DNA from: Sphingosinicella sp. CPCC 101087
GTDB lineage: Bacteria; Pseudomonadota; Alphaproteobacteria; Sphingomonadales; Sphingomonadaceae
Assembly: GCF_004151485.1 (NCBI RefSeq)
Contig: NZ_SBFF01000012.1
Span: 124,001 to 188,000 of the forward strand
DNA: 64,000 nt
Reading direction: 5' to 3'
The notes below the pieces were generated by a model. It was not told the origin of the DNA. It searched no databases and saw only the letters and a list, made by a program, of their open reading frames with translations. This document shows, in pieces, positions 375 through 16,356 of the stretch. Made by a program: the position numbers and the translations under genes. Positions within the stretch are counted from its first letter, which is position 1; each line of letters opens with the position of its first letter.

Positions 375-1658
375 CTATGGAACGAAACAGTGGGCGCGAT
401 GATGCGCCAGGTACGCCCCATGGCGTGCATCGAGTCCGGAGATCATCGCGCCTCGGACGATTCCCAATCGGTCGAGATTATCCTGGCTCAGTGTATTGGA
501 GATGAGCAGCGTTCCGTTGTCCTCGAAGGAAATGAGACCTCGATCGAACAAGGCATCGACATGCACTGCGAGCAAGAGTCCGTTGAAGGGGTCGAGCCGC
601 TCAGCGTTCGTGGCGCTTCGCCACGGCTTGATGTGCGAAGCACGCAAGAGCGGAAGGTGGTCAACGCCAGCCAGCGGACACGTCCCGTCCCAGGCGACGA
701 CGAGGGCGTTGCGAAAGTCGCCTTGACCGATCCTCGCGGCTTGCAAGCGCTCCTTCTCAGTGAGCGGGTCCTCGGCGGGCGCCACCACCCGGACTGGGCC
801 GTCGTCAGTCTCGAGGCGACTTGCGCCCTCCAGCAACGCGATCGTAGCGGCCAGATTGCTATCGGAGACGCCGAGAGCGAAGCCGTGACGGCCGACGGTC
901 GTGCGATGTGGTGCGATGTATTCCGGAAATTCCCGAAGGTGCGCGTTCACATAGCTCCGAGGCGGCTCGACGGTGTCGACGCCTAGAGCCCGAAGGCTAT
1001 CCGCCACGTCGAGGAAGCCGGGGTGAACGACGAGGGGCCGAGTAGCAGTCTCCCGCTTCACGTAAACGACGAGATCGCCGCGTCGCATCTGCACTACCTT
1101 GCCGGTGCGATTGCGCTCTTTGAAACCCAACGTCTCAAGCGCATCGACAAGGGCCGCATCATGAATAGGAAGTCCAGTCTGCCGGACGAGCGTCGATGGG
1201 ACCACCGGGAGGGTCAGCCCCTCAGCTTTGCGTTTCCAGGTTCGGACATTGGAATCCGGCCAGTCAACCCAGAGCTTCCCAATTTGCTCGGACAGTTCGC
1301 TCCGGAGGCGCGTGGAAAAGCGGTCGACGGGCTTTCCTTCACCGGGCTGGTCCCCGCGATATGGACACGTCCAATCGGCCACTCCGGTATACAAATATTT
1401 CGCATCGAAAAGCCCGACGAAGAGTGTTTCGCCCGGAACCGGCGAGACGAACGAGGCCCATATCCTTCGGTTGCGAAAGATAGGGCGGTTCTCCTTCTGG
1501 GTATCCTGGTAGAGGATAAAACCCTCCGGGTCGTCGCGCCAAAGGTCCGCGATGCTCGCCGCAGAGGCGCCGCGTTTGGGCGTGTGATGGCGGAGAAGCG
1601 CGACCTCCTTTGGAACAATGCCCCGTTCCAAAAGCAGATCGTTAAAACTGGCGCTCAT
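375..1658 (-). CDS. HNH endonuclease domain protein
   Basis: This predicted nuclease has a C-terminal HNH_2-type domain. Its motifs are CPLAGVDHLPLLRASHIKPW, then ERLDPFNGLLL and DALFDRGLISF, the usual landmarks of the family seen in restriction-like and orphan HNH proteins. The N-terminus (FNDLLLERGIVPKEV, then a WASFVSP/GLFDAKY region) resembles the N-domain often found on such nucleases. I chose the ATG at 1658 because GGAG lies 7 nt upstream; an in-frame ATG at 1688 would add 10 residues. The target is unknown; a defence or mobile-element role is inference from the neighbouring att scar. Confidence 0.8.
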   Translation of the reverse strand: MSASFNDLLLERGIVPKEVALLRHHTPKRGASAASIADLWRDDPEGFILYQDTQKENRPIFRNRRIWASFVSPVPGETLFVGLFDAKYLYTGVADWTCPYRGDQPGEGKPVDRFSTRLRSELSEQIGKLWVDWPDSNVRTWKRKAEGLTLPVVPSTLVRQTGLPIHDAALVDALETLGFKERNRTGKVVQMRRGDLVVYVKRETATRPLVVHPGFLDVADSLRALGVDTVEPPRSYVNAHLREFPEYIAPHRTTVGRHGFALGVSDSNLAATIALLEGASRLETDDGPVRVVAPAEDPLTEKERLQAARIGQGDFRNALVVAWDGTCPLAGVDHLPLLRASHIKPWRSATNAERLDPFNGLLLAVHVDALFDRGLISFEDNGTLLISNTLSQDNLDRLGIVRGAMISGLDARHGAYLAHHRAHCFVP

Positions 1659-2273
1659 CGCGGAACTCCATTCCGACAAAGTGGCCAAATCGTGCGTCGC
1701 TGGTCACCGGCGAGCATCGAGTATCACGAGCCTGGTAGTCGGAAAACAAGCGCATTTTGTGGCTCCGACCCGAAGGTGCCAATCAGCAAACGCCAAACTG
1801 CTTTCCACCTAGTTTTTTCGGGCGTCCGCTTTAGCTCCTGATAAGAACGAAAGCTGACAGACCGCTGACGGCCACGAGCGGCCGCGAAGGCCTGCGTCGT
1901 CCCACCAGGCGCCGCGAGATGTCACCCTAGCCGCTCGCTTGTTACCTATGCGTTACCTGACGCAAAACTAGGTAACAGAAAAATGGCGGAAAACTGGCGC
2001 GCCCGGCAGGACTCGAACCTGCGACCCCAAGCTTAGAAGGCTCGTACTCGCGGGCGTGTGCCCGCACATTGGGTGCGGTGCCACAAGCGCCCATCCGCTC
2101 AGTTTCGGTGGCCGGGTCGGCGTGATGCGCTCGTTGGGTTCCGCGGACTGTGTCAGGAACATTGCATTCGGAATGTCGCCCAATGCGCCCATTGCTGGCG
2201 TTCGCATTCAAGTAGTCGTGGTCGGCTGAAGTCTGCACACGCCAGTCAAGTGGCGCTCCTTTCCCGCCGGCTC
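1659..2273. other. intergenic region containing a tRNA scar
   Basis: Apart from the tRNA-Arg fragment (listed separately) I see no supportable gene here. The short open frames around the scar have no ribosome binding site and look like chance. The stretch separates the HNH gene from the giant-protein operon and probably holds the element boundary. Confidence 0.5.
1995..2049 (-). other. tRNA-Arg(TCT) 3' fragment, putative att site
   Basis: Read on the minus strand, the sequence gives the end of the D-stem, an anticodon arm CGAGC-CTTCTAA-GCTTG (anticodon TCT), a T-arm with GGTTCGAGTCC, the acceptor 3' strand CGGGCGC and GCCA. The 5' acceptor strand and most of the D-arm are absent. Such 3' tRNA ends are what tyrosine integrases leave at the distal end of an element. 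In this orientation the element would lie to the right and the older flank to the left. Confidence 0.75.
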
Positions 2274-3095
2274 CTACCGCTTTGTCTTGCGTTCGGCCTT
2301 GGCCTTCGATTTGGATGCAGCAAGCGACTGAGAAAAGTTCAGCTTACCCGCGGTTCTGGTGTCCACCCGAGCGCAGTTGACGATGTCGTAAATGGCGCGC
2401 CAATTCCGGGGTGCGCAGGTGATGCAGCCGGCAGATACGCGCCCGGCATGGAGATAGCGGTCGCCGGAATGCCCAATACGGAACCAGACAGTGCTCGGAT
2501 CTCCGTAGGGCGACTGGTGCGGGTAATCGGCGATCTCCAGGTCGTGATCGCCCTCCGGTAGGGGGTTTTGGGGGTCGGTCTTAGCCGCGAACGGGCCCGC
2601 CGTTTTGGCTTGGCCATTCTCTTTGTACGAAATGGAGAGCTGAAGATCATACATCTCGCCGTCGACGTCGATCGGCCCGCCAGGCCGAGGCTTCACGCGC
2701 AGCGCGAGGTCGCTGAGGCGGCGATAGCTGACCTGCAGGTTCCCGGTCGTCACATCGAAGCTGCTTCCGGCAAGATACCCTTCGAGGACGGTCCCATAGT
2801 CCCGGCCCTGTACAGTTCTAATAAAGTCGACTTTGAGGCCGGACGGCAGCGATGTTCTTGTGTTGTTTATCAGCACCACGAGCCAGCCACTAGTGGTGGA
2901 AGCGACGTAGCGAGCCTGCATCAGAATGCCCGGTTCGGTCATCAAGTTACGCGTCGAGGACTCGTAGAACGCCCTCCACGACAGTCCTTCTACTCGTTCC
3001 TCAAGCTCGAGAATTCTTGCAGACAAGGCGTCAATCTTGTCTTGTTGAGACGCTTCCAGTTCCGGCGGCTCCGATTGAGTTCTCGACCTCTTCAC
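2274..3095 (-). CDS. L,D-transpeptidase-like (YkuD/DUF2778-type) protein
   Basis: A 273-aa protein with an N-terminal coiled-coil stretch (DKIDALSARILELEERVEGL, about residues 20-40), a middle β-rich region and a C-terminal domain with GPFAAKTDP, then VWFRIGHSG and LHAGRVSAGCITC. The His (about 215) and SxGC Cys (about 224) match the catalytic pattern of L,D-transpeptidase-like folds, which cleave or link peptidoglycan peptides. The GTG at 3095 is preceded by GGGGAGG at ideal spacing, better than an ATG 33 nt upstream. It follows the 1791-aa gene by 99 bp and is probably the last gene of that operon. No signal peptide is obvious, so export would need the partner proteins or another route. Confidence 0.6.
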   Translation of the reverse strand: MKRSRTQSEPPELEASQQDKIDALSARILELEERVEGLSWRAFYESSTRNLMTEPGILMQARYVASTTSGWLVVLINNTRTSLPSGLKVDFIRTVQGRDYGTVLEGYLAGSSFDVTTGNLQVSYRRLSDLALRVKPRPGGPIDVDGEMYDLQLSISYKENGQAKTAGPFAAKTDPQNPLPEGDHDLEIADYPHQSPYGDPSTVWFRIGHSGDRYLHAGRVSAGCITCAPRNWRAIYDIVNCARVDTRTAGKLNFSQSLAASKSKAKAERKTKR

Positions 3096-3194
3096 GATTT
3101 CCTCCCCGTTGAAGTTTAATGGTCTCAAATTGGCACTCGGAGTGGAGAGTGTAAAGCAGAATCGAAGTCATTGGACGATCGCCAATCTCTCGTT

Positions 3195-6100
3195 TCAGAC
3201 CTTCGGCACGGCTACCTTCGCCATGAAGCGCGGACCGCTTTCGACGATTTCCTGCCCGTGGGCCGACAGCATCAGGTCGGTTTCCTCTAGGAAGACGTAA
3301 TAGGGGGCACGACGCGGATCCCGGCGGCTGTAGAGCGTGCCTTCCCAGATGAGATCGCCCTGCTTCTGTGAGGCCAGAGACGTCGTAACATCGACCGTCT
3401 CGTCGGCATCGGACTTGATCGCATCGACGAGCAGTTTCGGCTCGCGGCGCAGGGACGCCTTGAATCGCGGCCCAGTGATCGCGTCGAAACGGGAACGTAG
3501 CGGTTCGGGAAGCCGGTCGGCGCCGCCCGCGACTGTCGCGAGTGGCCCGCGAACCGCGACGTGAACCGGCCAGCGCCCATCCACCTTGCGTCCCTGCCAG
3601 ATTTCGACCCGCCGCGACGGCTCGAGGCGGAAATCGATCACGTCCGGGGTCGAGACGTGAAGATCGCACCAGGGATAGCCCGGCACGTTGCCGGAGCGTT
3701 CCAGCGCGTGCTCCTGATAACGCGCGATGCCAAGCCTCATCATCGGCGCACCGGCCAGGCCATGCGCAGCCGCTCGCGCATCGATGTCGATATCGACGTA
3801 CCAGAGATCCTGGGCGCTGTCATATTGCGGGTCGATGGTGAGCAGGTCCAGGGACCGGCCCTGTTCACGCGGAATGGGAATGCCTTCGCGATCGGAGGCC
3901 CCGTACATGGGGACCCATTGCCCTGCACGGATCCGGGCGCTCGGATCGCCCCTGAAAAGGGCGAGCGGCAGACGCCATGGGGGGCGGTCGCCGCTCTCAC
4001 GGATTGCGTCCGCTCCCCACTGGCTGACGTGGCGGGCGAGCGGACCCAATTTCCTGGGATCGGCACCGTCGGGGCAGGCCAGAAGCGCGAAACGCTCGCC
4101 GGCGCCCGAGGAATACCAGCCGCCGGGGGCGGGTCGGGCGACATCTTCGGCCCGGGCCCCGAGCAGGCGCGAGCGCCGCCACTGAAGGCGGACCGCCATG
4201 TGCCGCTCGACGAATCTCGGAGCCCTCAGGCTTCGCTCCCAGACGAAGGCCGGCAGCATCTCGACGAAGCTCATCGGGTCGGGCCGGCGTGTCGCGACGG
4301 CCCAGACGGTGGTTGATGCGCCTCGGGCCACGAAGCGCGGGCTGCTCGTATCCGCCGACATCAGCGGTGCGAATTTCGAGGCCGTGACCGGAGTCACCTC
4401 CAGCCGGTAGGCGCGGGAATCGAGGGAGGGGGAGAAGAGAGGTTCCGTCTTCAGCCCTTCCGTCACCAAGTCCACATCTTCCATGCGCGGATCGGGCAGC
4501 GGACGCGGGCTCAGCGGCATTCTCGAAGGTGGTATGCCGGCCATCTCGAAGGCGAGCCGGCCGCCGACGGTCGCAAGCCTGGCGCCGGGTTCGTCCCGCT
4601 GGTCCTCGTATCGAATCTCGAGCGTGACGTTTCCGCTGACCTGTCGGTCGACGCTGAGCGTGCCCCCCACCCAGGTCATTCCAGCTGCGAGTTCTTGCCG
4701 GTCGCTCCAGCGAGTGACATCGCCGACCTTCTCCGGCCACTTCTCCCGGGCGATCTCCTCGCGCAACAGCTGGAGGCTGTCGCCACCCCTCGGCCAGGAA
4801 GGTCTCAGCGGGGTCTGCACCGCGTGTACCACGCGCAGGTCGAGAATCTCCGCCTGCTCAGGCACCGGCCGGCACAGGATGGCGTTCCTGAAGGCCTGGT
4901 CGCGGAAGCGGAGTCCGGCTCGAGCCAGCATCTGTTGCGCGGCCGCGAAGCCGGCAAAAAGATCGAGATCGTCGGCGTCCGGCACGCACCAGCAGCGCAG
5001 GTCGAAGTCTGCGCCCGGGCTGAGCCGAAGACGTACGCGCCGGACGGTAACCGAGCCTTTCGGCGGATTCTGCCCCTCGCGCAGCCGGTGGAATCGGCGG
5101 GCCGCGGTCAGAAAACCGGTGCCGTCGAGGACGAGCTCGGTTCCGGCATCACCGCTCGCCCTCTCGACGTCGAGGACGATCGGCATGGCGAAAGGATAGC
5201 CACACGCGACCCAGCCATTGGAGATGCCAGGAAGGTCGGGAAGTCCGGGTTCCTTGCGAGGAGAGGGGATATTCGGCGCATCCTGGAAGTAGCCGTCATC
5301 GTAAATGTCGACGCACAGCGGCTCGGAAACCGCCATCGGATCGGGGCCCCGGGTGAAAAGCTGAAATGCCATCCGTCTCGCGGTCGGATCCGGATAATAA
5401 TGGGCTTTCCGTCCCAATAGCGCCTGTGCGTCGGTTCGCTCGACGCTGAAAACTCCTATGCAGCGTTCCTCGCGCGGGCTGGGAGCCGGCTCGGCGGCAC
5501 GACGCGGACCTGTTTTCGGCGGGGGAACTTCCTGGTTGCATGCAGCGCTTGCCCATTCGAGCCTGTCGCCTTTGCGGATGCCGAGGCCGCCCGTTTCGGG
5601 GTCCCAGCGGACATTGAAAAGGCCACCAATTGGTCGACCCGCCGGAGCCGGCAGCTCGTCCAGCGCGAGCCTGGCCCGCTTCGTGGGGTGGGGATGGCAA
5701 CTGGCCTGTTCGAGCGAAAGCCCCGGCACATAAAGGATGCGCCGCGCCAACGGGGTCCTGAGGTCGTCGTCCCCGGAACGAACGACGAGCGTGTCGAGGG
5801 CGTCGCCGGGCCGTGAGACGGTTGCGGGATCGAGGATGGCCGCCACCGGCGCTGCGATCCGCTCCTGCCGTCTGAGGACGTAAGGCGCATCGACGGTCTG
5901 GCGGGGGATTGCGGTCGGCGCGGTGCCGACCCCCTCGTAGACGAGCCGGGCCGTCTCGAGCGGGAGCCCGACGCCTCCGGCATAAGTGCATCGCAGACCG
6001 AAGCGATAGGACCGGCCGAATTCCATTCGGGGTGGACGCCGATCCCTTGCCCCACTGGTCGGCGGAGGACCGGGCAAGCCGAACTCGGGATACAAAGCGA

Positions 6101-8570
6101 GGTCCACGGTTTCGTCGACATCGTCCTCGTGCAGGTTCAGCCCAGCCGTGCACGGGGCGCCGAGCGGATCGATCTCCCATTGCATGATGGTGTCGATCGC
6201 GAGATATTCGCCGGCTTCGCTCCTCTGCCCCAGCTTCACAGGCGAAGCGGGAACCATGCGAGTTGCCGGGCGGACGCTCGCGGCATCGAGGCTCCGGCGA
6301 AGAGCCGGGATTTCGGCCGGCTCGGCGATGGCGGCAAGAGCCGCTGCAATCAGGGGCTCGAGCGGCTCTTCGCCGACGGGGATGGGGAAGCTGACGTCGC
6401 GTTCGGTGAGACTGCGCCACTCCCATTGCTGGGTCCGCTTCGACACCACCGCGACGTCGACCCGATAGCCGGTCACAAGATCCTTGGTGAACAGCTTCTT
6501 GTTCGGCTCGCCACGACGGCGCAGATCGTCGCTGGCCTTGATTTCGCCCTCGACCGCTTGCGCCCGGGCGCTGTCGTGGAGGGCTATTCCCGCCGTCCTT
6601 GCCGGAAGATCGCCGAGCTCGAGATCGCCTCCGGCGCGCGTATTGGCCGCGTCGCCCTCCGCTTTCTGGATCATCTGCTCGGCGCGCCCGCTGACGTCCA
6701 GGCTGGTCAGGAAGTAACGGGACCCCTGACCGTCGGACTGGTTGAGGTTCAGCGTTCCAAACAGATGATCGGCCTGGTCCTGCCCGATGCCGCCCTTGAC
6801 CTGGTCGAAGGTCGTGAACAACCAGCGGTCCGGCCCCAGCGGGGCGAGCTCGCACGCCGTCCAGTAGGTGACGTCCTCGCCAGCGCTGTTGCTGCGCGGG
6901 GCGATGAAAAATCTTGCTCGCCTGCCGCTGCCGACCGCGCTGCGCACATCTTCCGGAAGCACGTCCAGCGCGAACTCGACATCGACGACCAGCTTCATCA
7001 CCCTGGCCACGGTCGGATAGGCGAGCATTCCGAACAGGCGCCGTCGATCGGCATCCTTCATCGCCAGCAGGCACTGGTGCGCCTCGGAAGCCGAGAGCGA
7101 GTAGGCCGCGCCCGTCTCGGGCGTGACGGGGAAGATCAGCCCGGATGTTTCCGGTTCAGGGTCGGGGCGGGCCGCAAGCAGATGTGCCGCGATCAGCTTC
7201 TGGAACGCCGGCCGGTTGCGGCGCAAGCGGACGCGAAGGTCCCTTGCGAAGATATCGTTGACCAGTCCCTCGCCGAGGCTGGTCAGAGAGACATTTCGCC
7301 TCTGCAACTCCAGCTCGACGCCGGCAAGCGCCTGCTCGACGTCGGCCTCGATCGAATGTCGGCGGCGGGGCGCGGCTGTCTCCGCCCGGACCGAAGCCTC
7401 CGGCGCAAAGCCGCCTGCCATATAGCTCGATCGCGCCGCTTCCATCTGCTCCTGACGAGCCGCGCGGATGGCGTCGCGAAGCGTCGACGGGAGGCTGCTG
7501 TCGGGGCCGGGATCCATTGCATAGCGATGGAAGGGGTGGGCGATCGCCGAGGCTGCATCGCGGCGCGCGTTGGCGGCGCCCGCCTCTTGCCACGCGTCAT
7601 TAGCCTCCGCGGCGACCTGCTGCGCGACGGCGAGCCCGCGGCCCGCGACCAGTCCGCACGCAAATTCGAGGTGAGGGTCGGGGACGCCCTGCCTGGACGT
7701 CAGTGACTGGCCGCCATCGATCCCCAAGAAAAGGTTCGTTGTCCCGGACCAGGCTGTGACAGCCAGCGAGGCGGGGGCGGGTTCGTGTGGCTCGTCGGCC
7801 GGGCTTGCGGCGCGATGGCCGGGGATCCTTCCCTGCGCCGTATAGCCTGTCGAGGCCTGCACGATCGGCCGGTCGAGACTGAACAGATATTGGGCCGTAT
7901 CGAGAGCGGTGAACGCGCTCTCGAGCATCGCCGACGGCGTGGCGGTGACGAAACAGGGTCCCTCCGCGACCAGCGCGGATCCCTCGGTATCGCGAGCCCC
8001 CAGTCTGAACGGGCGGTGCTGGTCGTCGCGACGCCATTGATAGGCACGCGGCCCCAGAAATTCGCTGACAATCGAAGCCACGTTCTGCCGGGCGTCGGCC
8101 TCGTCCGGGGTGGCGGCGGGGCTCGGCGCGCTGGCCGTGCGCAGGATTGCCAGCGTGCGGTCGCTGATGCGGTCGCTTTCGCCCCGCGCCAGCCTGCGCC
8201 AAACCAGCATGGCCTTGTCCACATTCTCCTGGCTGAAGTCGGTCAGAAAGCGCAGCCTGGACGCACCGAGGGTCGCGCTGTTGGCAGGCGTTTGTCTGCC
8301 ATCCGGATCGACGCTGACCCGGAGAAACACTTCGTCAGGAGCTTCGAGCATGTTCCTGACGGTCCTGGGCCAGGAATCCACCTCTTCGCCGTCGCCGGGC
8401 ATGATGAGCAGGGCCCCGCGCAGACGCAGGTCCGCCCCGGTACCTCTTACTTCGTGCGGAATGAAGCGGATGAGTGGCGGTGCCCAGATCCCGCCTTCCG
8501 CTTGCGCGCCGCCCCAATCGCCCGCTTCGAGCTCCGCGTCCGTGTCGCCCCACCCGCTCAGCTCTTCCAT
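3195..8570 (-). CDS. giant protein of unknown function (1791 aa)
   Basis: A single uninterrupted frame of 1791 codons. The ATG lies 1 bp after the stop of the upstream 2594-aa gene, so translation is almost certainly coupled. It has no signal peptide or transmembrane segment that I can see. Composition suggests many β-domains with a helical stretch around residues 330-450. Trp-, Pro- and Asp-rich segments and paired Cys (for example RCWCVPDADDLDL) recur in the second half. Near the C-terminus MMRLGIARYQEHAL and FYLEETDL-like strands suggest repeated β-sandwich modules. I do not recognise a family. Antisense frames of up to 525 codons here are shadows of high GC third positions. Confidence 0.75.
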   Translation of the reverse strand: MEELSGWGDTDAELEAGDWGGAQAEGGIWAPPLIRFIPHEVRGTGADLRLRGALLIMPGDGEEVDSWPRTVRNMLEAPDEVFLRVSVDPDGRQTPANSATLGASRLRFLTDFSQENVDKAMLVWRRLARGESDRISDRTLAILRTASAPSPAATPDEADARQNVASIVSEFLGPRAYQWRRDDQHRPFRLGARDTEGSALVAEGPCFVTATPSAMLESAFTALDTAQYLFSLDRPIVQASTGYTAQGRIPGHRAASPADEPHEPAPASLAVTAWSGTTNLFLGIDGGQSLTSRQGVPDPHLEFACGLVAGRGLAVAQQVAAEANDAWQEAGAANARRDAASAIAHPFHRYAMDPGPDSSLPSTLRDAIRAARQEQMEAARSSYMAGGFAPEASVRAETAAPRRRHSIEADVEQALAGVELELQRRNVSLTSLGEGLVNDIFARDLRVRLRRNRPAFQKLIAAHLLAARPDPEPETSGLIFPVTPETGAAYSLSASEAHQCLLAMKDADRRRLFGMLAYPTVARVMKLVVDVEFALDVLPEDVRSAVGSGRRARFFIAPRSNSAGEDVTYWTACELAPLGPDRWLFTTFDQVKGGIGQDQADHLFGTLNLNQSDGQGSRYFLTSLDVSGRAEQMIQKAEGDAANTRAGGDLELGDLPARTAGIALHDSARAQAVEGEIKASDDLRRRGEPNKKLFTKDLVTGYRVDVAVVSKRTQQWEWRSLTERDVSFPIPVGEEPLEPLIAAALAAIAEPAEIPALRRSLDAASVRPATRMVPASPVKLGQRSEAGEYLAIDTIMQWEIDPLGAPCTAGLNLHEDDVDETVDLALYPEFGLPGPPPTSGARDRRPPRMEFGRSYRFGLRCTYAGGVGLPLETARLVYEGVGTAPTAIPRQTVDAPYVLRRQERIAAPVAAILDPATVSRPGDALDTLVVRSGDDDLRTPLARRILYVPGLSLEQASCHPHPTKRARLALDELPAPAGRPIGGLFNVRWDPETGGLGIRKGDRLEWASAACNQEVPPPKTGPRRAAEPAPSPREERCIGVFSVERTDAQALLGRKAHYYPDPTARRMAFQLFTRGPDPMAVSEPLCVDIYDDGYFQDAPNIPSPRKEPGLPDLPGISNGWVACGYPFAMPIVLDVERASGDAGTELVLDGTGFLTAARRFHRLREGQNPPKGSVTVRRVRLRLSPGADFDLRCWCVPDADDLDLFAGFAAAQQMLARAGLRFRDQAFRNAILCRPVPEQAEILDLRVVHAVQTPLRPSWPRGGDSLQLLREEIAREKWPEKVGDVTRWSDRQELAAGMTWVGGTLSVDRQVSGNVTLEIRYEDQRDEPGARLATVGGRLAFEMAGIPPSRMPLSPRPLPDPRMEDVDLVTEGLKTEPLFSPSLDSRAYRLEVTPVTASKFAPLMSADTSSPRFVARGASTTVWAVATRRPDPMSFVEMLPAFVWERSLRAPRFVERHMAVRLQWRRSRLLGARAEDVARPAPGGWYSSGAGERFALLACPDGADPRKLGPLARHVSQWGADAIRESGDRPPWRLPLALFRGDPSARIRAGQWVPMYGASDREGIPIPREQGRSLDLLTIDPQYDSAQDLWYVDIDIDARAAAHGLAGAPMMRLGIARYQEHALERSGNVPGYPWCDLHVSTPDVIDFRLEPSRRVEIWQGRKVDGRWPVHVAVRGPLATVAGGADRLPEPLRSRFDAITGPRFKASLRREPKLLVDAIKSDADETVDVTTSLASQKQGDLIWEGTLYSRRDPRRAPYYVFLEETDLMLSAHGQEIVESGPRFMAKVAVPKV

Positions 8571-8571
8571 G

Positions 8572-11500
8572 CTACAGCCCTTCGTCGAAATAGCTTCGGT
8601 AGGTTCGCCATTCCGCGTTCATCGCGACCGCGCGCGAAACGGGGCGTCGGGGCGCCTCTCCGCCGATATGAGAGGGGCCCGGCATCAGCATCGGTGTGTA
8701 GAATCGCTGTGTTTCCGGATTCGACCAGCTCGAGAGCAAGGCGAGGTGCTGCTCGGTGACCGCACGAAACGTCAGCCGGTTGCCACCGCTCCACCCTTTC
8801 GCGATCGCCCTGAGGACCGGGACCTCGTAGTCGAAGTCCTTGATTCCGATGGAGAAGGAAAAGGTGTAGGTAGCCGACCCCTCCATTTTTCCGCCGGCGC
8901 GTTGCTCGACCGACACGAGCAGGCAAGTGCTGACTCCGAAGAAGGCGATCTTGATCGAGCCGGCAGCGATGAAATAGCCGGATAGACGCGCGCTGGCGCC
9001 CGACCGCATGATGTAAAGCCCGGTCATCACCCGGACCTGGCCGCTCGCCGGGCCGAAGCTCACCACGGCCATGCCGCCATATTCGAAGGAGGCTTCGAAA
9101 CCCGTGATGCCCTTGGCATTCGCATGCAGGGAGACAAAGCCGCCGCCGCCATAGGGCGCGGCGGAAATCAGGAACGGCGCCGCGCGCCTTGCCAAATTGA
9201 ACTTGAAGGTGGCCGGCTTGTTCGTGAATGGAAGCACGACGCTTGCGCCCAGCGAGACGTTCGCGAAGGCGACGGATCCGATGCTGATCGTGCCGAGGTC
9301 GATCATGAAGCCGGCCTCGATGGCCGGCGGCGCCAGCTGAAGGTCAATGAAGAAGCCGCTGTCGCCGCCGATCCCGAGCCATTCCTGAAGCTGCTGGATG
9401 AACTCGACCGCTGCGCCGAGCTTCACTTCGGCGATCCGTATGTCGAGGTTCGGCGAGCCGCCATCCTTGATGGTGAATGTCGTCTTCGTGAAATAGAGCG
9501 TGACGACTTCGAAGATGTTGATTTCGAAGGGCTGCAGGACCCCCAGGGTGCTGATCGCAGTGGCCGACGGGTTGCGCGCGTCGATGCTGGTCTGGAAGGT
9601 TACCTTGAGCGCCTTGACGTCCGAACCGGGGTCGCCGCCATAGTCCTGCCTTCCGGACTCGATCATCCTGAAGAAGGGCGGCAGCGCGTTGAGATCCGTG
9701 TCAAAGCTGTAGGAAAGGTTGATCCGGGGCAGCACGAGGTCGAGCATCGCCGCCTCGATCTGCCGTCGCATCCGCTTCAGATCGATCAGATCCTGGAGAC
9801 GTCCATGCAGGAGCGAGTCGAGCACTTCGCCCAGATCCTGGGTTAGCCGATAGAGGGCGGGCGGGGACCTGTCGCCCGCCTGGCCGCCGTCGCGGATGGC
9901 GGCAAACCTGTCACGCCAGATCACTATCTTGCGCAGCGCCTCCTGCATGTTTCCGCTGTCCACGGCGCGCTTTGCCTCGTCGAGCTCGGCGCGCTGAACC
10001 TTGAACAGATTAAGTGTTTCGGGCTGAAGCAGGGTTGCCTGCAGCTCGGGCCTTAGGATGAGCTCAAGCATCCGCCGGTAGGGCTGATTTTCGCCGATTG
10101 CCTGCTGGACCTCCCGGAGCGGTTCGAAGAGCAGATCCGCGCGGGTGTGCACTTCGATAAGAGAATCCAGGATCGCCAGCATGACCGGCTTGGCGGCGGC
10201 GAAGATGGTGTCGCGCGCCGCCTTCTCGGCGGTGGCCAGCGAGGCGGTCGCCGCTCCGACGAGCTTACGCTCGACGTCGAACGCGAATCGCTCCAGCTGG
10301 AGAACAGGCTCCGCCTTGGCGACGAGGTGCAGTCGAAGCGTTTCGATGGTGCCTGTCTGGCTGTCGGCAAGATTGATAAGGAAGACGTACAGGGCCTCCA
10401 GGTCAGCCTTCCTGCCGGTCCATTCGCGCTCGAAGGCGCCGATCGCTTGGACGATCTCGGATCGGGCGGGTTCGGCGAGCTCGCTCGCGACCGAACGAAC
10501 CGCGTTCCTCAGTCCGTCCAGCGCCGCCTGGGAGCGAAGGCTTGTCAGCTCCCTGGCCGTCGCAATTCCCTTCGCCAGGAGGCCGGAGGCCTGACGTGCG
10601 GCTTGGTTGAGCCAGCCGTCGGCGAGGACGGTACAGTCGCTGAACGCCCTCCAGCTCTCCCCCTGTCTTTGCGGCGCCGCCGGCAGCTCTGCGCCGATCG
10701 CTCGGGCCGCTTCCCGCACCAGAAGCAAACCGTCCGCAGCAAGGCGGACACGATGATTCATCCATCTCGACGCCGAACCCAGAAGGGTCGCCAGACCGTC
10801 GCAAATTCTGCCAGGGGCCGCGTCAAGCGTCGCCTGCTCACGCTTCAGGGCGGCGATCGTATCCTTCATCCTGTCAACGGTGGCGCCGAGCTTCCGGCGA
10901 AGCTGTGAGACGGTTTCGAGCGCTCGCTCGATACGTGCCCGCACCTGCTCAGAATCGCGCGCCAGCGCGACCCGATCGGCCGAGCGGCTCGCGACCATGG
11001 TAATTCGGTGAGTCTCGCGCGAAAGCGATTGAAGGCAGGCTGAAAGCTGCCTCTCCTTCTCGGCCAGCTGCGCTAGGTAGGGATCGGTCTCGCGCAGCAG
11101 CTTCTCCACCGAATCCACGGGCCCTATCAGCGTGTCCGTCCCGGACCTGAAGCGCTGCCTGATGATTTTGAGGGCCTCGCCCAGGGGGCCGTCCTCTCGG
11201 CAGATATCCGGAACGGCCAGCGGCCCGGGAAGCGCGGCGGCAAGGGCTTCGAGGACCCGATCGACGGTCGCGAATATCTCGGCGCTGATCGTGCGCACGT
11301 CGTCGAGCCGGCCTTGTGCCGCTTCCTCAACCAATCCGTGGCAGGCGCCGAGGGCGGCAAGAGCGGGCCGACCGATCGCCTCATAGCAGAGCGCCTCGGG
11401 CGCCGTGGACGCCAGCCTCGCGAGGAGCGAGGACAGATTGCACGAATCGGTCGGGCAATTGGCGAGATTGGGATAAGCGTCGGGACCCAGGACGGTGGCA

Positions 11501-14500
11501 AGCCACTCGCGCGAAGGCTCGCGCAGGAGCGCGTTTCGGCCCTCCGCCGCCTGGCGACGCAGCTCCTCCTGCAGCTTCGCCTTCACGTCGGCGGTGAAGG
11601 TCCTGGCCGCGGATGCGATTTTCTCGATGAACTGCGTCAGCCCCTGGGGAATCGGGTCGCGACCGATCCGGTCGACCTCGGCGAGCAGGGCCAGCAGCGC
11701 TCGGTTGAGCCGCTTCGCTGCCGCAACAATGGCCTGCAGCTGCTGGAGCGGGTTCTCGGTGGACTGGCCGGCCGTGAAGCGCCTCAGATCGGCGATCTCG
11801 GCCAGCACATGGTCGAGCTCCAGCTTCAGCCCGGGATAGAGCTCCCCGACATTCCCGCCGAATGGCGTGGGTTGCGACAGCATCCCGGAGACTTCTTGGG
11901 CCGCGTTCTCGGCAGCCCGGATCATCGGATCGACCTGCTGCAGAAGCCTCGTCAGTTCCTGCGCCACGCGGTCGGCCGAAGCTTCGACCTGTTCTATCAG
12001 TTTGGGCGCTTGCGCGTAGAGGGCCGTCTTGACGATGTCGCGAAGCGACAGGATGCCGAGCAGAAGGGCGTCCTGCGGAAAGAAATCAGCGCCGCAGAAC
12101 GTGCCTCCGCGAGCACCGCCGGAGGCCGGGGCTGAACCCGCTCGGTGCAATTCTTCACGCGCCCCGGCCGCGGCCCCACTGGCCGCCGCAAATCCTTCGG
12201 CGGACATAGAGCCTGCCGAGGCCAGCAAGGGCCGCGATGGCGCCTGCTGCCCCCCCACCGGTCCGCTGACCTGCGACCAGTTGACGGCCACTATGGTGGG
12301 CTGGGCAATGCCTCCCGATCGCTCGCCCGACTGGTTCAGGTCGAGACGAACAGGGGGAGCTTGGGGTACGTACCAGTTTGCTGGATCGGTCGGCAGATAG
12401 CCGTGAACGGCGAGGAACATCCGCGCCGGGTTCGCCGGCGTCATCCCGTGGCGGACGAAGAGGTCGTCGTATGAGACGATGGCATGGTCGCTGGTGCGCG
12501 CCGAAAATGCCTGAAGCGACCGAAGCCGGACATGGGCCTCGCGCACGAACGGGTAGAAGGGCGGCTGGTCCTCCCCCTCCATCGCGGCATCCATCTGATA
12601 GGGCTTGCCCGGTCGATCCCCCCGGCCGCGGGCGCCAAGGATCCAGCGCGCCGTCTCGAAGCTAGCCGAACGTGGCTCTATCTCCGGGGCATAGCGAATT
12701 GCCCGGCCGTGCTGGTCGGCCGTGCTGAGGCCGCTTTCGCCGCGCAGGCCCATATAATAGTCGACGACCGCCTTGACCGTGTCCGGATGATGAACCGCCG
12801 TATTATCGAGGAAGAGGAGGGGGAGGGTGGTGAGGCCGGCCTTGCCGTCCAGGAAGAGCTCGAACTTCACCTCGCCGCCGCGGCCGGGACGAAGCCTCGG
12901 CCAGAAGATCATGCCGCGACTTGCGGGAAGCTGGAGCTTGCCGCCCGGATAGACCCCGTCCTGCAGCGCGCCGTCGGTCGAGGTCGGATCGAGAATGTCC
13001 GCCGTCTGGAGCGTTCGGAATATCGCGTTGGAAACCGGAAAATCGCGTCCGTCGAACGGGTGCCCGAGCGCCGCAAAGCTCTTTTCCGGATCGTTGATCC
13101 GGATGAAATAGCGCTGGACCAGATAGGCCACCGGATAGTCGCCGTCCGGCGCCGGGAGGAAGTAGCGATCGGTGCATTTGACGAGCGATGCCCGATGGCC
13201 GATCGGGAACAGGAACCCCTTGTAGATCACCTCGACGAACTGGTCGCGGCCCAAGTTGGTTCGCTGGTTCCAGGATTCGACATTGAGGGCTTCGAACGGC
13301 GGATTATCCCAACTGGGCTGCGGCTGGTCCTTCCAATAGGGCGCGGCCGGCGGATTGAAGCGGGCGAAGACGCCCAGGTTTCCGCCAAGCGATGAAAGCC
13401 TCAGATCCTTCACTTCGATCGCGGGAGGAATGAAAAGCGCCTGCTCTTCGAGCCCGGGGATCTGCCATGCCTCCGGCGCGACAATGCTTTCGGGCAATGC
13501 ATCGCCGGGGCCGGTCGGCACCGGTAGCCGGACCCAGAACGCGCTATTCGAAACAGGCTGTGCCGATGCCGCCGTCTCGCTGACGAAGCGATAGCGATAG
13601 CCATCGGCGGCGCGCGCTATGTCGCCCCACTGATATTCCCGGGCCGACTGATAGTTGCCGCGATCGACTGAGCCCGCGGGATCATCCATCAATTTCCAGT
13701 GGGTCGCCGTGCACGGCTGAACGCCTGGCTGGGGCGAAGGATGGGTGTAGAGATAGTATCTGCCGTTGCCTGCCCACCGGACGATGCTCCCTCGCCGGTA
13801 TGTCGCGGACGGAGAGAAATCGCCGACATGCGCAGGCGGCTGGCGCAGCGCCGGGAGGATCGGCAAGCCGAAGAGAGTCGACAGCGCGACCAGCTCATGC
13901 CGATCTTTCCGACTGAGCGGAAAGCGGGTCGAACCGCCCCATGGCGTGCTATGATCCTGCGGATAGTCGCGACCGGATAGAAAGACCTCCGGTTCGAAAT
14001 CCTTGCTGCCGACGGTTCGAACCTTGTTTCGAGCGAACCTCTTGTTGCGATCGACATCGGGCCTGTCCGCCACGTCGGGACCCAGTTCGGCAACAAGCTT
14101 CGTCGACCATAAGGGGACGACATCCCAGCGAGACCGGGGCCGATCCGCGGACGGCGGTGGCGAGCCCAGAAAGCTGCCGCGAAGGTCAGGGCCGCGGGCG
14201 CTGACGACGGCATTCTGATCGGGCGACATGAGCAGCCGTGCCGGAAGCTCGATCAGTGTCTGGAACTGCGTCGAATCGTCGTCCGCCACGGCAAGCGCCG
14301 TGACGGCCTGCAGTCGCTCTCTCAGATCCGTCGTCGGCACGAGACCAAGGTCCTCGAGGATCTTCAAGGGGTCGGTTTCGGGAATCTCGTCAATCTTCGC
14401 GCCGGCCCGGTCGGTTGGGTTTTCGCGTGGCCGCCGTGGCCTCATCACGGTCCGAGCGACCTTGGGCACCTCCAGGGTGAGGCGCTCCCAGTCGGTGAGG

Positions 14501-16356
14501 CCCGCCAGCGTGAAGGGAACGTCCACGCGACGTCGGCTGCGCCGCCGTCTCTTCACCTTGAACGCGATCCGGCTGCAGCCGGACAGCCGCGCTTCCACTA
14601 CCCTGGCCAGAGGCGGTTCGGCGGGCAGAGGAGGCAGCGGACAGGTGGGGGACACATAGTCCCGATCCTGCGCCCGCTTCTCCGCCTCGATCTTGCAAGC
14701 CGACGGGAGCGACCCGTCCATTTCACGCATTCGCTCCTCGTTGATGGGCGTGACCGGCGGAATGTCCCGATCCGCATCGAGGCCGGCGGTCTGCACCTGA
14801 CGGAAGATGGTCTCCTCCATCACGTGTTGCGGGGGAAACTCGGCCACCAGGACAGGAGCTTGCCCGTGCTGCTCCAGGCGCCAGCCGCCGATGCGGCGGA
14901 CCAGCGCCATATCCCTGAAGCGGAAGCTGAGGCTGAGCAGGTCCTCTGCCCGGGCAACCCGCAGCGTTGCATTTTCGAGGGGGATCCACCACCTGCCGAA
15001 GAGTCCGGTCGAGGTGATCCAGTCCCAGACATTTTCCGGCCTGCGGCTGCCGCCAAGTTGAATCGACGCTTCCTGTCCCTCAAACTCGAGCTGGCTGAGA
15101 TCGGCTCCGTCGACCCTGATCGGGATGGCGACAACCTCTGTGCGGATCTGGCAGCAGGCCCCGTCGGAAGCGCCGGCGCGAACCTCGATGCAGTGGCGAT
15201 CGCTGGATCCCCTGACCACGGCCGAGCCGGACGGACAGGATATCACGTGTTCGCGGTCGGAGATCGGGAGCGCGGCGACGAAACCCGCCTTGCGCGTGCC
15301 ATCGCGTCCCAGGAGCAGTAGGCCGTTGTCCGACTGAAAGCCGCCCCAGCGATTGGCTCCGGCGGCCGAATCGACGCGCCAGGCGCCGGCAAGCGCGAAG
15401 CGGCTGCGGCCTTGCTCGCAGCGCACAGCGACGCACTCATGCACGTCCGTCAGATGCAGCTCGGCTCGCTCTTCTCCTGGGACAGACCAGCGTAGCCGGG
15501 CTCGCGGACGTAATCTCGCATTCCGAGCGCTCGCCGCTGTGGACCAGCCTGTCGGCTGCTCCTCGAACCGGCTCAACGGAGATTCGCGCGGAGAGTGGAC
15601 TTTGAAGACGAGCTGGCGAGCCTCGGTCAAACGGCGCGGCCCGACGACTCCGTCGGAAAGGGAGAGCAGCCATTCGAGTTCGGGCAGGAAGGCAATGGTT
15701 CCGCCGTGACCGCCTGCCAGCGACCACCCGGCGATCTTCGCTCTGGCCGCAATCGAGCGCGTGTCGTGGGAGACCGGCGCCTCTGTCCCGTCCAGGAAGT
15801 TGTGGAAGCCGACGGGGCCCGGGGCGAAGTCCAACCCGGCAGACGCGACCTTCAGCATCCACTCGTCGGAGCGAATGAACTCGATACTGAGGTCGAAAGG
15901 CAGTCCAGTGCCCGGCAGCTGCGCGTTGGCGACTTCAAGTCTGCGGGTCGCTGTTGTAAAGGTCGGGGTCGGGCCGAAGGCGTCCTTGCGCACCATCCAG
16001 GTCCGCCCGGCAAGCCGGACTCGGATGCCCAGCAAGCGCCCCTCGTCATCAAATATTCGTCTGAATTCGGGCACCTCCGCTGCAGCGGCAATCCGACCTA
16101 CAACGTCTGCGGAGGCGATGGCGGCCGGCAGCTGGAAAAACTGCCGACGCGTTACCGGAAGAAGCTGTGGGTTGCTTGTGCCCAGAGGGTCAGACAACCG
16201 GCGTAAGCTTGTCCATGACTTGCTGATGTCTTTCCGAAACACAGTAAGCCCCCCCGAGCGCACTGGTACGTGTGTCCAGCTCTCGTCTGAAGGAAGAGCG
16301 GAACCCATTAACGAAATTAGCTCGCTACAAAATTGCGAGCAACGCAGGTAATGCAC
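8572..16356 (-). CDS. giant multidomain protein of unknown function (2594 aa)
   Basis: A very long uninterrupted frame. The N-terminal half is β-rich. Around residues 840-945 are two tandem modules with a Y-x-x-G-(S/D)-I pattern, aromatic strands and a closing W, resembling CBM5/12-type sugar-binding modules. Residues about 1435-2210 are long amphipathic helices rich in Ala, Glu, Arg and Leu. The last 350 residues are β-rich with PYGGGGFVSLHA near 2405. TRRQFF at residues 69-74 looks like a twin-arginine motif, but the following segment contains charged residues. The first start is GTG at 16356; ATG at residue 17 is an alternative, and neither has a strong ribosome site. It heads the operon with the 1791-aa gene. 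I do not recognise the family. Confidence 0.75.
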   Translation of the reverse strand: MHYLRCSQFCSELISLMGSALPSDESWTHVPVRSGGLTVFRKDISKSWTSLRRLSDPLGTSNPQLLPVTRRQFFQLPAAIASADVVGRIAAAAEVPEFRRIFDDEGRLLGIRVRLAGRTWMVRKDAFGPTPTFTTATRRLEVANAQLPGTGLPFDLSIEFIRSDEWMLKVASAGLDFAPGPVGFHNFLDGTEAPVSHDTRSIAARAKIAGWSLAGGHGGTIAFLPELEWLLSLSDGVVGPRRLTEARQLVFKVHSPRESPLSRFEEQPTGWSTAASARNARLRPRARLRWSVPGEERAELHLTDVHECVAVRCEQGRSRFALAGAWRVDSAAGANRWGGFQSDNGLLLLGRDGTRKAGFVAALPISDREHVISCPSGSAVVRGSSDRHCIEVRAGASDGACCQIRTEVVAIPIRVDGADLSQLEFEGQEASIQLGGSRRPENVWDWITSTGLFGRWWIPLENATLRVARAEDLLSLSFRFRDMALVRRIGGWRLEQHGQAPVLVAEFPPQHVMEETIFRQVQTAGLDADRDIPPVTPINEERMREMDGSLPSACKIEAEKRAQDRDYVSPTCPLPPLPAEPPLARVVEARLSGCSRIAFKVKRRRRSRRRVDVPFTLAGLTDWERLTLEVPKVARTVMRPRRPRENPTDRAGAKIDEIPETDPLKILEDLGLVPTTDLRERLQAVTALAVADDDSTQFQTLIELPARLLMSPDQNAVVSARGPDLRGSFLGSPPPSADRPRSRWDVVPLWSTKLVAELGPDVADRPDVDRNKRFARNKVRTVGSKDFEPEVFLSGRDYPQDHSTPWGGSTRFPLSRKDRHELVALSTLFGLPILPALRQPPAHVGDFSPSATYRRGSIVRWAGNGRYYLYTHPSPQPGVQPCTATHWKLMDDPAGSVDRGNYQSAREYQWGDIARAADGYRYRFVSETAASAQPVSNSAFWVRLPVPTGPGDALPESIVAPEAWQIPGLEEQALFIPPAIEVKDLRLSSLGGNLGVFARFNPPAAPYWKDQPQPSWDNPPFEALNVESWNQRTNLGRDQFVEVIYKGFLFPIGHRASLVKCTDRYFLPAPDGDYPVAYLVQRYFIRINDPEKSFAALGHPFDGRDFPVSNAIFRTLQTADILDPTSTDGALQDGVYPGGKLQLPASRGMIFWPRLRPGRGGEVKFELFLDGKAGLTTLPLLFLDNTAVHHPDTVKAVVDYYMGLRGESGLSTADQHGRAIRYAPEIEPRSASFETARWILGARGRGDRPGKPYQMDAAMEGEDQPPFYPFVREAHVRLRSLQAFSARTSDHAIVSYDDLFVRHGMTPANPARMFLAVHGYLPTDPANWYVPQAPPVRLDLNQSGERSGGIAQPTIVAVNWSQVSGPVGGQQAPSRPLLASAGSMSAEGFAAASGAAAGAREELHRAGSAPASGGARGGTFCGADFFPQDALLLGILSLRDIVKTALYAQAPKLIEQVEASADRVAQELTRLLQQVDPMIRAAENAAQEVSGMLSQPTPFGGNVGELYPGLKLELDHVLAEIADLRRFTAGQSTENPLQQLQAIVAAAKRLNRALLALLAEVDRIGRDPIPQGLTQFIEKIASAARTFTADVKAKLQEELRRQAAEGRNALLREPSREWLATVLGPDAYPNLANCPTDSCNLSSLLARLASTAPEALCYEAIGRPALAALGACHGLVEEAAQGRLDDVRTISAEIFATVDRVLEALAAALPGPLAVPDICREDGPLGEALKIIRQRFRSGTDTLIGPVDSVEKLLRETDPYLAQLAEKERQLSACLQSLSRETHRITMVASRSADRVALARDSEQVRARIERALETVSQLRRKLGATVDRMKDTIAALKREQATLDAAPGRICDGLATLLGSASRWMNHRVRLAADGLLLVREAARAIGAELPAAPQRQGESWRAFSDCTVLADGWLNQAARQASGLLAKGIATARELTSLRSQAALDGLRNAVRSVASELAEPARSEIVQAIGAFEREWTGRKADLEALYVFLINLADSQTGTIETLRLHLVAKAEPVLQLERFAFDVERKLVGAATASLATAEKAARDTIFAAAKPVMLAILDSLIEVHTRADLLFEPLREVQQAIGENQPYRRMLELILRPELQATLLQPETLNLFKVQRAELDEAKRAVDSGNMQEALRKIVIWRDRFAAIRDGGQAGDRSPPALYRLTQDLGEVLDSLLHGRLQDLIDLKRMRRQIEAAMLDLVLPRINLSYSFDTDLNALPPFFRMIESGRQDYGGDPGSDVKALKVTFQTSIDARNPSATAISTLGVLQPFEINIFEVVTLYFTKTTFTIKDGGSPNLDIRIAEVKLGAAVEFIQQLQEWLGIGGDSGFFIDLQLAPPAIEAGFMIDLGTISIGSVAFANVSLGASVVLPFTNKPATFKFNLARRAAPFLISAAPYGGGGFVSLHANAKGITGFEASFEYGGMAVVSFGPASGQVRVMTGLYIMRSGASARLSGYFIAAGSIKIAFFGVSTCLLVSVEQRAGGKMEGSATYTFSFSIGIKDFDYEVPVLRAIAKGWSGGNRLTFRAVTEQHLALLSSWSNPETQRFYTPMLMPGPSHIGGEAPRRPVSRAVAMNAEWRTYRSYFDEGL

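What the first reader, a model, noticed from the sequence alone, without database searches (positions are those of the whole stretch)
2274..16356. Operon of two giant unrecognised proteins plus an L,D-transpeptidase-like protein
Two unbroken frames of 2594 and 1791 codons on the minus strand are only 1 bp apart, and a small protein with a His/SxGC catalytic pattern follows. Long helical and β-rich segments, possible sugar-binding modules and a peptidoglycan-acting candidate suggest an envelope-associated machine or a delivered toxin complex. I cannot assign a family to either giant protein. The location next to a tRNA scar shows it is likely mobile cargo.
Basis: partly seen in the sequence, partly recalled or inferred. 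Interest (0 to 1): 0.78.

Follow-up and report, generated by a model that had tools for sequence, protein, structure and literature searches.

The report
Giant protein pair with Tat signal
Two enormous bacterial proteins of unknown family are encoded side by side in many bacteria, and the long forms of the first one carry a conserved tag for the folded-protein (Tat) export pathway, so they look like an uncharacterised giant exported complex that is often carried on plasmids.

Summary
The frames are real: A (2594 codons) and B (1791), minus strand, 1 bp apart; C (284) starts 66 bp after B. A and B reach no curated family cut-off (Pfam, NCBIfam) and no convincing PHROG, PADLOC or PDB sequence match. 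They form a conserved two-gene unit: relatives occur in Alpha-, Beta- and Gammaproteobacteria, an acidobacterium and Streptomyces, and on 15 plasmid records. Both genes were found in 45 of 50 loci, always same strand, A first; the other five are contig ends, short pieces or A fragments. C has no relative there. Main result: every A frame over 2000 codons that includes its N-terminal side (32 of 32) begins with a twin-arginine (Tat) signal, against 5 of 283 neighbouring genes and 0 of 45 B proteins; most shorter A forms lack it. TatA-like genes lie beside A-B in three loci. So long-form A is probably a giant Tat substrate and B may travel with it. Modest-confidence models give A an amphipathic, porin-barrel-like C-terminal domain and B fibronectin-like sandwiches. 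The gene after B varies; in some loci it is a secreted peptidase or a lysozyme-like protein. An envelope-associated carrier acting on other cells is my leading guess; function is inferred, not shown.

The parts
8572..16356 (-). gene A: giant protein, 2594 codons (first codon GTG; an ATG lies at codon 17, later GTG/TTG codons too)
   Evidence: relatives
16078..16152 (-). Tat (twin-arginine) signal of A: TRRQFF, then a hydrophobic stretch (residues about 69-93)
   Evidence: R70 and R71 invariant among five relatives; motif scan; reading
12037..14979 (-). A, conserved beta-rich core (residues about 460-1440)
   Evidence: alignments; model of the Streptomyces homologue
9727..12030 (-). A, poorly conserved, probably helical region (residues about 1443-2210), much reduced in short forms
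   Evidence: only weak coiled-coil-like matches
8797..9711 (-). A, conserved C-terminal domain of long amphipathic strands, porin-barrel-like in the model of a homologue
8587..8610 (-). A, C-terminal motif W..Y...F
   Evidence: strict form in 25 of 46 A C-termini, 0 of 283 neighbouring genes
3195..8570 (-). gene B: giant protein, 1791 codons, no Tat-like signal
   Evidence: model of a homologue
2274..3128 (-). gene C: small protein with an L,D-transpeptidase-like H(x11)SAGC pattern (residues 220-235, at 2424-2471); not conserved with A-B
1992..2049 (-). fragment of tRNA-Arg(TCT), likely attachment-site scar beyond the end of the cassette

Best explanation
A and B are the two subunits of an uncharacterised exported complex. 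Long-form A, as in the window, carries a Tat signal, so it is most likely folded in the cytoplasm and moved across the inner membrane by the Tat translocase (signal shown; transport inferred). B has no Tat signal and is the next gene in every locus where both are found, so it most likely rides along bound to A, as in known hitchhiker export (inferred). In the periplasm or at the surface A contacts a membrane through its barrel-like C-terminal domain, and B's sandwich domains form a scaffold (model-based). The variable small gene that often follows B, in some loci a secreted peptidase or a lysozyme-like protein, would be the exchangeable active part; the likeliest use is action on the envelopes of other cells (inferred). 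My estimates: A-B a real two-part unit 0.97; long-form A a Tat substrate 0.85; B co-exported 0.55; envelope antagonism 0.3. The confidence below is for an exported two-subunit complex.
For: A-B adjacency in 45 of 45 loci where both are found, same strand, A first; a search started from B finds it in 5 of 398 phylum genomes, all 5 with A in the adjoining stretch (frames seen directly for four of them). A and B distances correlate across 24 loci, r = 0.97, and r = 0.95 without the three Streptomyces; 0 of 2000 permutations reach either. Tat signals in 32 of 32 A frames over 2000 codons that include the N-terminal side, 5 of 283 neighbours, 0 of 45 B. TatA-like genes beside A-B in S. meliloti LMB1 (annotated; used as query), Mesorhizobium and Mangrovimicrobium; the query found no others in 50 loci, 1,275,765 bases. 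Barrel-like C-terminus of a homologue: Z 15.0, rmsd 3.4 over 194 residues with CymA; strand amphipathicity. First downstream gene signal-like in 13 of 25 versus 54 of 301 controls, p = 3e-4; astacin, matrixin, M35 peptidase and phage-lysozyme matches there. Precedent: in PaoABC only PaoA has the signal (PMC4273604, passages read).
Against: No export was measured. Of 15 A frames of 2000 codons or fewer, 11 lack a Tat signal; of these L044 and L052 are fragments and L011 is cut by the end of its piece, but at least seven whole short forms remain, so Tat export is not universal in the family. Streptomyces has no outer membrane (established knowledge), which argues against a plain porin role. The A model is modest (pLDDT 66.6, pTM 0.41, 25 sequences), comes from a Streptomyces homologue about 23% identical to the window's A, and a barrel from a thin alignment can be wrong. 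A prefolded hydrophobic barrel is an awkward Tat cargo. The window's C and the lysozyme-like genes have no signal-like N-terminus by my rule. TatA genes are seen in only 3 loci.
Confidence: 0.55

Rival explanations
1. A alone is exported by Tat; B is a dedicated cytoplasmic scaffold or chaperone that folds A and checks it before export, as redox-enzyme maturation proteins do for other Tat substrates (recalled).
For: B has no Tat-like signal (0 of 45) and is strictly coupled and coevolving with A; giant Tat cargo would need folding help.
Against: B is itself giant and its homologue is modelled with fibronectin-like sandwiches, more typical of exported structural proteins; short A forms without a Tat signal still keep B.
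Confidence: 0.2
2. A-B is a cell-surface or extracellular structural layer or adhesin that holds cells to a surface or polysaccharide; the small secreted neighbours are incidental.
For: Sandwich-rich B model; in my reading of the alignments no catalytic-looking conserved cluster in A or B; variable N-terminal regions in A.
Against: Signal-like neighbours are enriched after B; patchy spread, 5 to 7 of 398 genomes; no sugar-binding profile found.
Confidence: 0.2
3. A-B moves or holds lipid: the C-terminal amphipathic sheet is a lipid-binding trough or barrel, in the manner of LptD, TamB, apolipoprotein B or microsomal transfer protein.
For: Foldseek lists LptD first, and ApoB and MTP lower; a DUF4403 gene lies 1.1 kb after B in one locus; a patatin-like gene and a zinc phospholipase C gene lie near A-B in two others.
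Against: Those Foldseek alignments have rmsd 30 to 48 and TM about 0.1; structural realignment favours closed porin barrels.
Confidence: 0.1
4. A-B-C is a three-gene peptidoglycan machine in which C is an essential L,D-transpeptidase.
For: C follows B by 66 bp on the same strand and has H...SAGC.
Against: C has no relative in any other A-B locus and misses the YkuD cut-off.
Confidence: 0.03

Closest known systems
Tat substrates with hitchhiker partners (E. coli HybO-HybC, PaoABC)
   Same: One subunit carries the twin-arginine signal; the partner from the same operon carries none.
   Different: Those are redox enzymes; PaoABC is 135 kDa in all (PMC4273604, passages read). The window's A and B together have 4385 residues, no recognised cofactor domain, and some loci have a TatA-like gene beside them.
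Outer-membrane porins (CymA, OmpG) and autotransporter barrels (EspP)
   Same: The model of a homologue's C-terminal domain superposes on them (Z up to 15.0), with alternating strand faces.
   Different: The domain sits behind a giant, often Tat-type N-terminal part, is followed by a further tail with a conserved motif, and occurs in Streptomyces.
L,D-transpeptidases (YkuD) and the T6SS effector Tlde1
   Same: C has a His followed by S-x-G-C.
   Different: Below the YkuD cut-off. The Tlde1 motif is given as HXX14-17-(S/T)HGC (PMC9638812, passages read); C has 11 residues between His and Ser, and SAGC.
Insecticidal Tc and other delivered toxin complexes (recalled, not compared directly)
   Same: Large subunits and a small variable partner.
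   Different: No match of A or B to a curated family in the libraries used; Tat signal on the large subunit of the long forms.

Membership tests
Tat substrate | N-terminal twin-arginine motif followed by a hydrophobic stretch | tested here: met
   Window A: TRRQFF; 32 of 32 A frames over 2000 codons with the N-terminal side; met for long forms, in only 4 of 15 shorter or broken frames. One of ten members also matches Pfam TAT_signal, E 0.0036
Tat substrate | Export lost without TatC | not testable with these tools
   needs an experiment
Tat hitchhiker pair | Partner lacks a Tat signal and is co-encoded | tested here: met
   B 0 of 45 with a Tat-like start; A-B same strand in 45 of 45. Sec-type signals of B were not scored
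Tat hitchhiker pair | Partners bind and depend on each other for export | not testable with these tools
   correlated divergence is compatible, not proof
Outer-membrane beta-barrel / autotransporter | Closed transmembrane beta-barrel | tested here: inconclusive
   Model of a homologue, ten-residue pLDDT means 59-83 over residues 661-870, Z 15.0 to CymA
Outer-membrane beta-barrel / autotransporter | Barrel at the extreme C-terminus | tested here: not met
   In the model the last strand ends at 868 of 921; a tail with W..Y...F follows. Rests on the model being right
L,D-transpeptidase (YkuD), for C | Profile score at the curated cut-off | tested here: not met
   14.6 versus 23.4 bits
L,D-transpeptidase (YkuD), for C | His and S-x-G-C nucleophile pattern (recalled) | tested here: met
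   HSGDRYLHAGRVSAGC at 220-235
Known anti-phage defence system | Convincing match of A or B to a defence family | tested here: not met
   PADLOC-DB of 2023: weak ZorA matches in the helical part of A (best E 0.0032), none in B
Phage or tailocin structural protein | Match to phage protein families or phage genomes | tested here: not met
   PHROGs: A best E 0.12, B none; A has no match in 50,697 phage records; pattern-based viral contig scans gave no relative

The most novel reading that the evidence does not exclude
A-B is a new kind of delivery apparatus: a prefolded complex of roughly 3800 to 5300 residues (A plus B in the long form) that leaves the cytoplasm whole through Tat, in some hosts with its own TatA subunit, and then inserts the A barrel into a membrane to place an exchangeable hydrolase, encoded by the next gene, on or in other cells.
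Probability: 0.13. Interest if true: 0.92.

Novelty: categorically new. Interest (0 to 1): 0.66.

Why it matters
If long-form A is really moved by Tat, it would be far larger than the Tat cargoes I know of (recalled), and with B a still larger unit; that tests how the Tat pore adapts to cargo size and why a cargo locus would have a TatA gene beside it. The cassette occurs in three phyla and on plasmids, so it probably gives its bearers something worth transferring, yet none of the family libraries used here names it. It makes a concrete question testable with ordinary tools: is there a Tat-dependent giant complex that equips environmental bacteria with exchangeable envelope-attacking enzymes?

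Tried and rejected
Family labels for A and B: Pfam, NCBIfam, PHROGs and PADLOC for the window proteins; PDB sequences for A and C alone and for ten-member profiles of A and B (B alone was not sent); Pfam for all ten members of each family. Flagellin, MCE, SMC, ZorA and designed helical-bundle matches in A fall in the helical stretch at marginal E (8.7e-5 at best, far below cut-off) and were set aside as coiled-coil noise.

Sugar-binding modules: two tandem aromatic-rich stretches in window A (about 840-945) and W/G-rich repeats at the N-terminus of three Streptomyces A proteins look like carbohydrate-binding modules and lectin propeller repeats to the eye (recalled likenesses). No Pfam model supports either, so I do not claim them.

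A conserved third gene: clustering of 5871 neighbouring open frames gave no cluster in more than 8 loci; the widest looks LysR-like by eye and several others are transposases. A batch Pfam scan of 92 same-strand neighbours (of 122 listed) gave 39 scattered families, 25 shown; one Amidase_2 match there was not traced to its gene. PADLOC on the same 92 gave 35 families, 25 shown, among them Cas3, type IV restriction, DrmB and DndC, which I read as island company, not function.

Rows dropped: L001 (copy of the window), L009 and L010 (weak matches of G256 and G014, E 2e-4 and 8e-4) were left out of the 50-locus counts. In one search G552 (27 positions, E 6e-5) is too weak to count, and G571 is a partial A with a TGA inside and no B. 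L030's second A piece (2004 codons, profile start 513) is the downstream part of a split A and was left out of the 32; its upstream piece has the Tat signal.

The first A alignment for folding (A4) was out of register and was replaced by A5. Viral fold library: nothing convincing. The long Foldseek alignments of A to LptD and teneurin have rmsd of about 40 and are not fold matches.

Weaknesses of my own tests. A first Tat count that defined the long form partly by profile start gave 36 of 38; as that is partly circular I use length, 32 of 32. The motif was widened after L019-L021; the same widened motif was applied to controls, but A and B were read stop to stop and the neighbours from a start codon. 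The TatA search used one query, the S. meliloti gene, which itself is one of the three; for the other two the chance of both lying within 1 kb of A-B is about 0.02, and the p of 0.002, which counts the query, is too strong. The signal-like rule for downstream genes is home-made, applied to genes picked by a GC-by-codon-position filter, and some of the 13 are short frames that may not be genes. The Pfam-supported hydrolases right after B are five, two of them from near-identical Bradyrhizobium loci (L025, L043).

Full report
What is there. A and B are one base apart. A search of the window's own genome finds A once.

No family. A and B gave nothing at the curated cut-offs of Pfam or NCBIfam and nothing convincing in PHROGs or PADLOC. 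PDB sequence searches gave only marginal matches in the helical part of A and none for the B profile. Pfam scans of all ten members of both families gave one Tat-signal match and marginal noise. C matches YkuD at 14.6 bits, below the 23.4 cut-off.

Relatives. tblastn in 72,556 plasmid records found A in 15 and B in 6. I fetched 13 of the 15 A records; profile search finds B next to A in 12 of these 13, the exception (L017, Paraburkholderia) having only fragments of A. A scan of 84,980 species genomes with an alignment of five A proteins returned 34 loci: many Hyphomicrobiales and other Alphaproteobacteria, several Burkholderiales and other Betaproteobacteria, one gammaproteobacterium (Mangrovimicrobium), one acidobacterium (Occallatibacter) and three Streptomyces. 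That scan works from short patterns and will have missed others. Phage records and viral contigs gave none.

A and B are one unit. Of 50 loci (window included; L008 and L011 are two pieces of one genome, L025 and L043 near-identical; three loci left out as stated under Tried and rejected) both genes are found in 45, always on one strand with A first. The five with A only are a contig end or short pieces (L023, L011, L049) or fragments of A (L017, L052). Because these loci were found through A, I also searched from B: in 398 genomes of the window's phylum, the window's own among them, B is in 5, and all 5 have A in the adjoining stretch; the frames were seen side by side in the four others (one of these, G540, appears to be the genome of L022). 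A is in 7 of the 398, of which one is a weak match and one a partial frame with a stop. In a separate draw of 289 class genomes 4 pass the threshold, of which 2 are convincing, the window's own and one other. Pairwise distances of A and B across 24 loci correlate at r = 0.97, and at 0.95 across 21 without the Streptomyces; no permutation of 2000 reached either.

C is not part of it. phmmer of C against the frames of the 50 loci finds only itself. A weak C relative lies on a Gemmatirosa plasmid with no A or B in the 36.6 kb around it.

Export signal. Long A proteins begin with S/T-R-R-x-F/L/I/V and a hydrophobic stretch, often ending in A-x-A. Counting by length, 32 of 32 A frames over 2000 codons that include the N-terminal side have it; of 15 shorter or broken A frames 4 do and 11 do not. 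The same motif test finds it in 5 of 283 neighbouring genes and 0 of 45 B proteins. In the window the motif is at residues 69-74, that is 52 residues after the first ATG, or fewer if one of the later GTG or TTG codons is the start. A TatA-like gene follows B directly in S. meliloti LMB1 (annotated as TatA/TatE); searching with it finds two more, one after B and an M35 peptidase gene in Mesorhizobium WSM4311 and one divergent from A in Mangrovimicrobium, and no others in 1,275,765 bases of loci. All three start within 1 kb of A-B; for the two not used as query that has a chance of about 0.02 under random placement in the flanks. No tatB or tatC is annotated in the 35 kb shown for S. meliloti. 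My inference is that some hosts pair this cargo with an extra Tat pore subunit.

Architecture. A divides into a variable N-terminal part, a conserved beta-rich core (window about 460-1440), a poorly conserved helical region, and a conserved C-terminal domain with a C-terminal W..Y...F motif (strict form in 25 of 46 A C-termini; 0 of 283 neighbours, 0 of 27 B, 0.2 of 46 in shuffles). Short forms keep core and C-terminal domain and lose most of the rest. I modelled the compact Streptomyces A core with 25 sequences including the window: pLDDT 66.6, pTM 0.41. Its C-terminal part is a run of long strands; VIA-align gives Z 15.0, rmsd 3.4 over 194 residues for CymA and 13.5-14.2 for four OmpG entries. 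The strands of the C-part (593-868) alternate hydrophobic and polar faces (mean difference 2.6 versus 1.4 shuffled; 2.2 versus 1.8 in the rest of the model). This fits a membrane barrel, but Streptomyces lacks an outer membrane, so a pore-forming or lipid-contacting role is as likely as anchoring. The B model (1200 residues of the Streptomyces B, 27 sequences, pLDDT 68.8, pTM 0.59) resembles tandem fibronectin type III domains, Z at most 8.1, within the range the tool calls common.

The gene after B. Where a same-strand gene starts within 500 bases of B, 13 of 25 have a signal-like N-terminus by a home-made rule, versus 54 of 301 other neighbours (p = 3e-4). Pfam supports astacin (L016), matrixin (L035), M35 peptidase (L022), all three signal-like, and phage lysozyme (L025, L043, not signal-like) there; L019 and L032 carry signal-like proteins without a significant Pfam match. 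Other loci have unrelated genes or none. The window's C, with its H...SAGC, would fit as a peptidoglycan-acting third gene, but has no signal-like start. I infer an exchangeable enzyme slot; the numbers are small.

Setting. The cassette is on 15 plasmid records, 6 of them typed conjugative. In the window a fragment of tRNA-Arg(TCT) lies just beyond C and a stretch at about 29796-31474 matches conjugal TraG of Sphingobium at 79%, so the region is probably an integrated element.

In print. Five searches of the open library returned no description of this pair that I could recognise; only the listings were read. The library lacks most subscription papers, so it may be described elsewhere. For background I read passages of PMC4273604, PMC9251779, PMC2275737, PMC1550398 and PMC9638812.

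Verdict. A real, widely spread, unnamed two-gene system with strong sequence evidence of Tat targeting for its long-form A protein; co-export of B and membrane contact are plausible but unproven; function is open, with envelope-directed antagonism my leading guess.

Noticed in passing
window 1992-2049: Fragment of tRNA-Arg(TCT), 97% identical over 58 bases to a place on another contig of the genome (C43) where the whole tRNA is found; likely attachment scar of an integrated element.
   Followed up: partly
window 29796-31474: Stretch 79% identical to conjugal transfer TraG of a Sphingobium plasmid, so the window probably holds an integrative conjugative element.
   Followed up: no
window 378-1688 (-): Gene with an HNH endonuclease domain (PF13391) next to the tRNA fragment.
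   Followed up: no
window 17277-18272 (+): 331-aa protein with a sub-threshold GAF-domain match between A and tRNA-Lys.
   Followed up: no
L003 26672-35079: A dpd gene cluster (dpdE to dpdH annotated; recalled as deazaguanine DNA modification) follows the A-B cassette on an Agrobacterium vitis plasmid; B is split into two frames there.
   Followed up: no
L044, L048, L050, upstream of A: A family 5 extracellular solute-binding protein gene lies upstream of A in three loci.
   Followed up: no
L014 and L017: A is split in two frames in Rhizobium ruizarguesonis TP23 and reduced to fragments without B in Paraburkholderia sabiae: the cassette decays in some hosts.
   Followed up: partly
L002 7657-9459 and 28502-29098: A zinc-dependent phospholipase C gene before, and an M35 metallo-endopeptidase gene after, the Ruegeria A-B pair.
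   Followed up: partly
L045, L046, L047, N-terminus of A: These Streptomyces A proteins start with tryptophan- and glycine-rich repeats that look like a lectin propeller by eye but match no Pfam model.
   Followed up: partly
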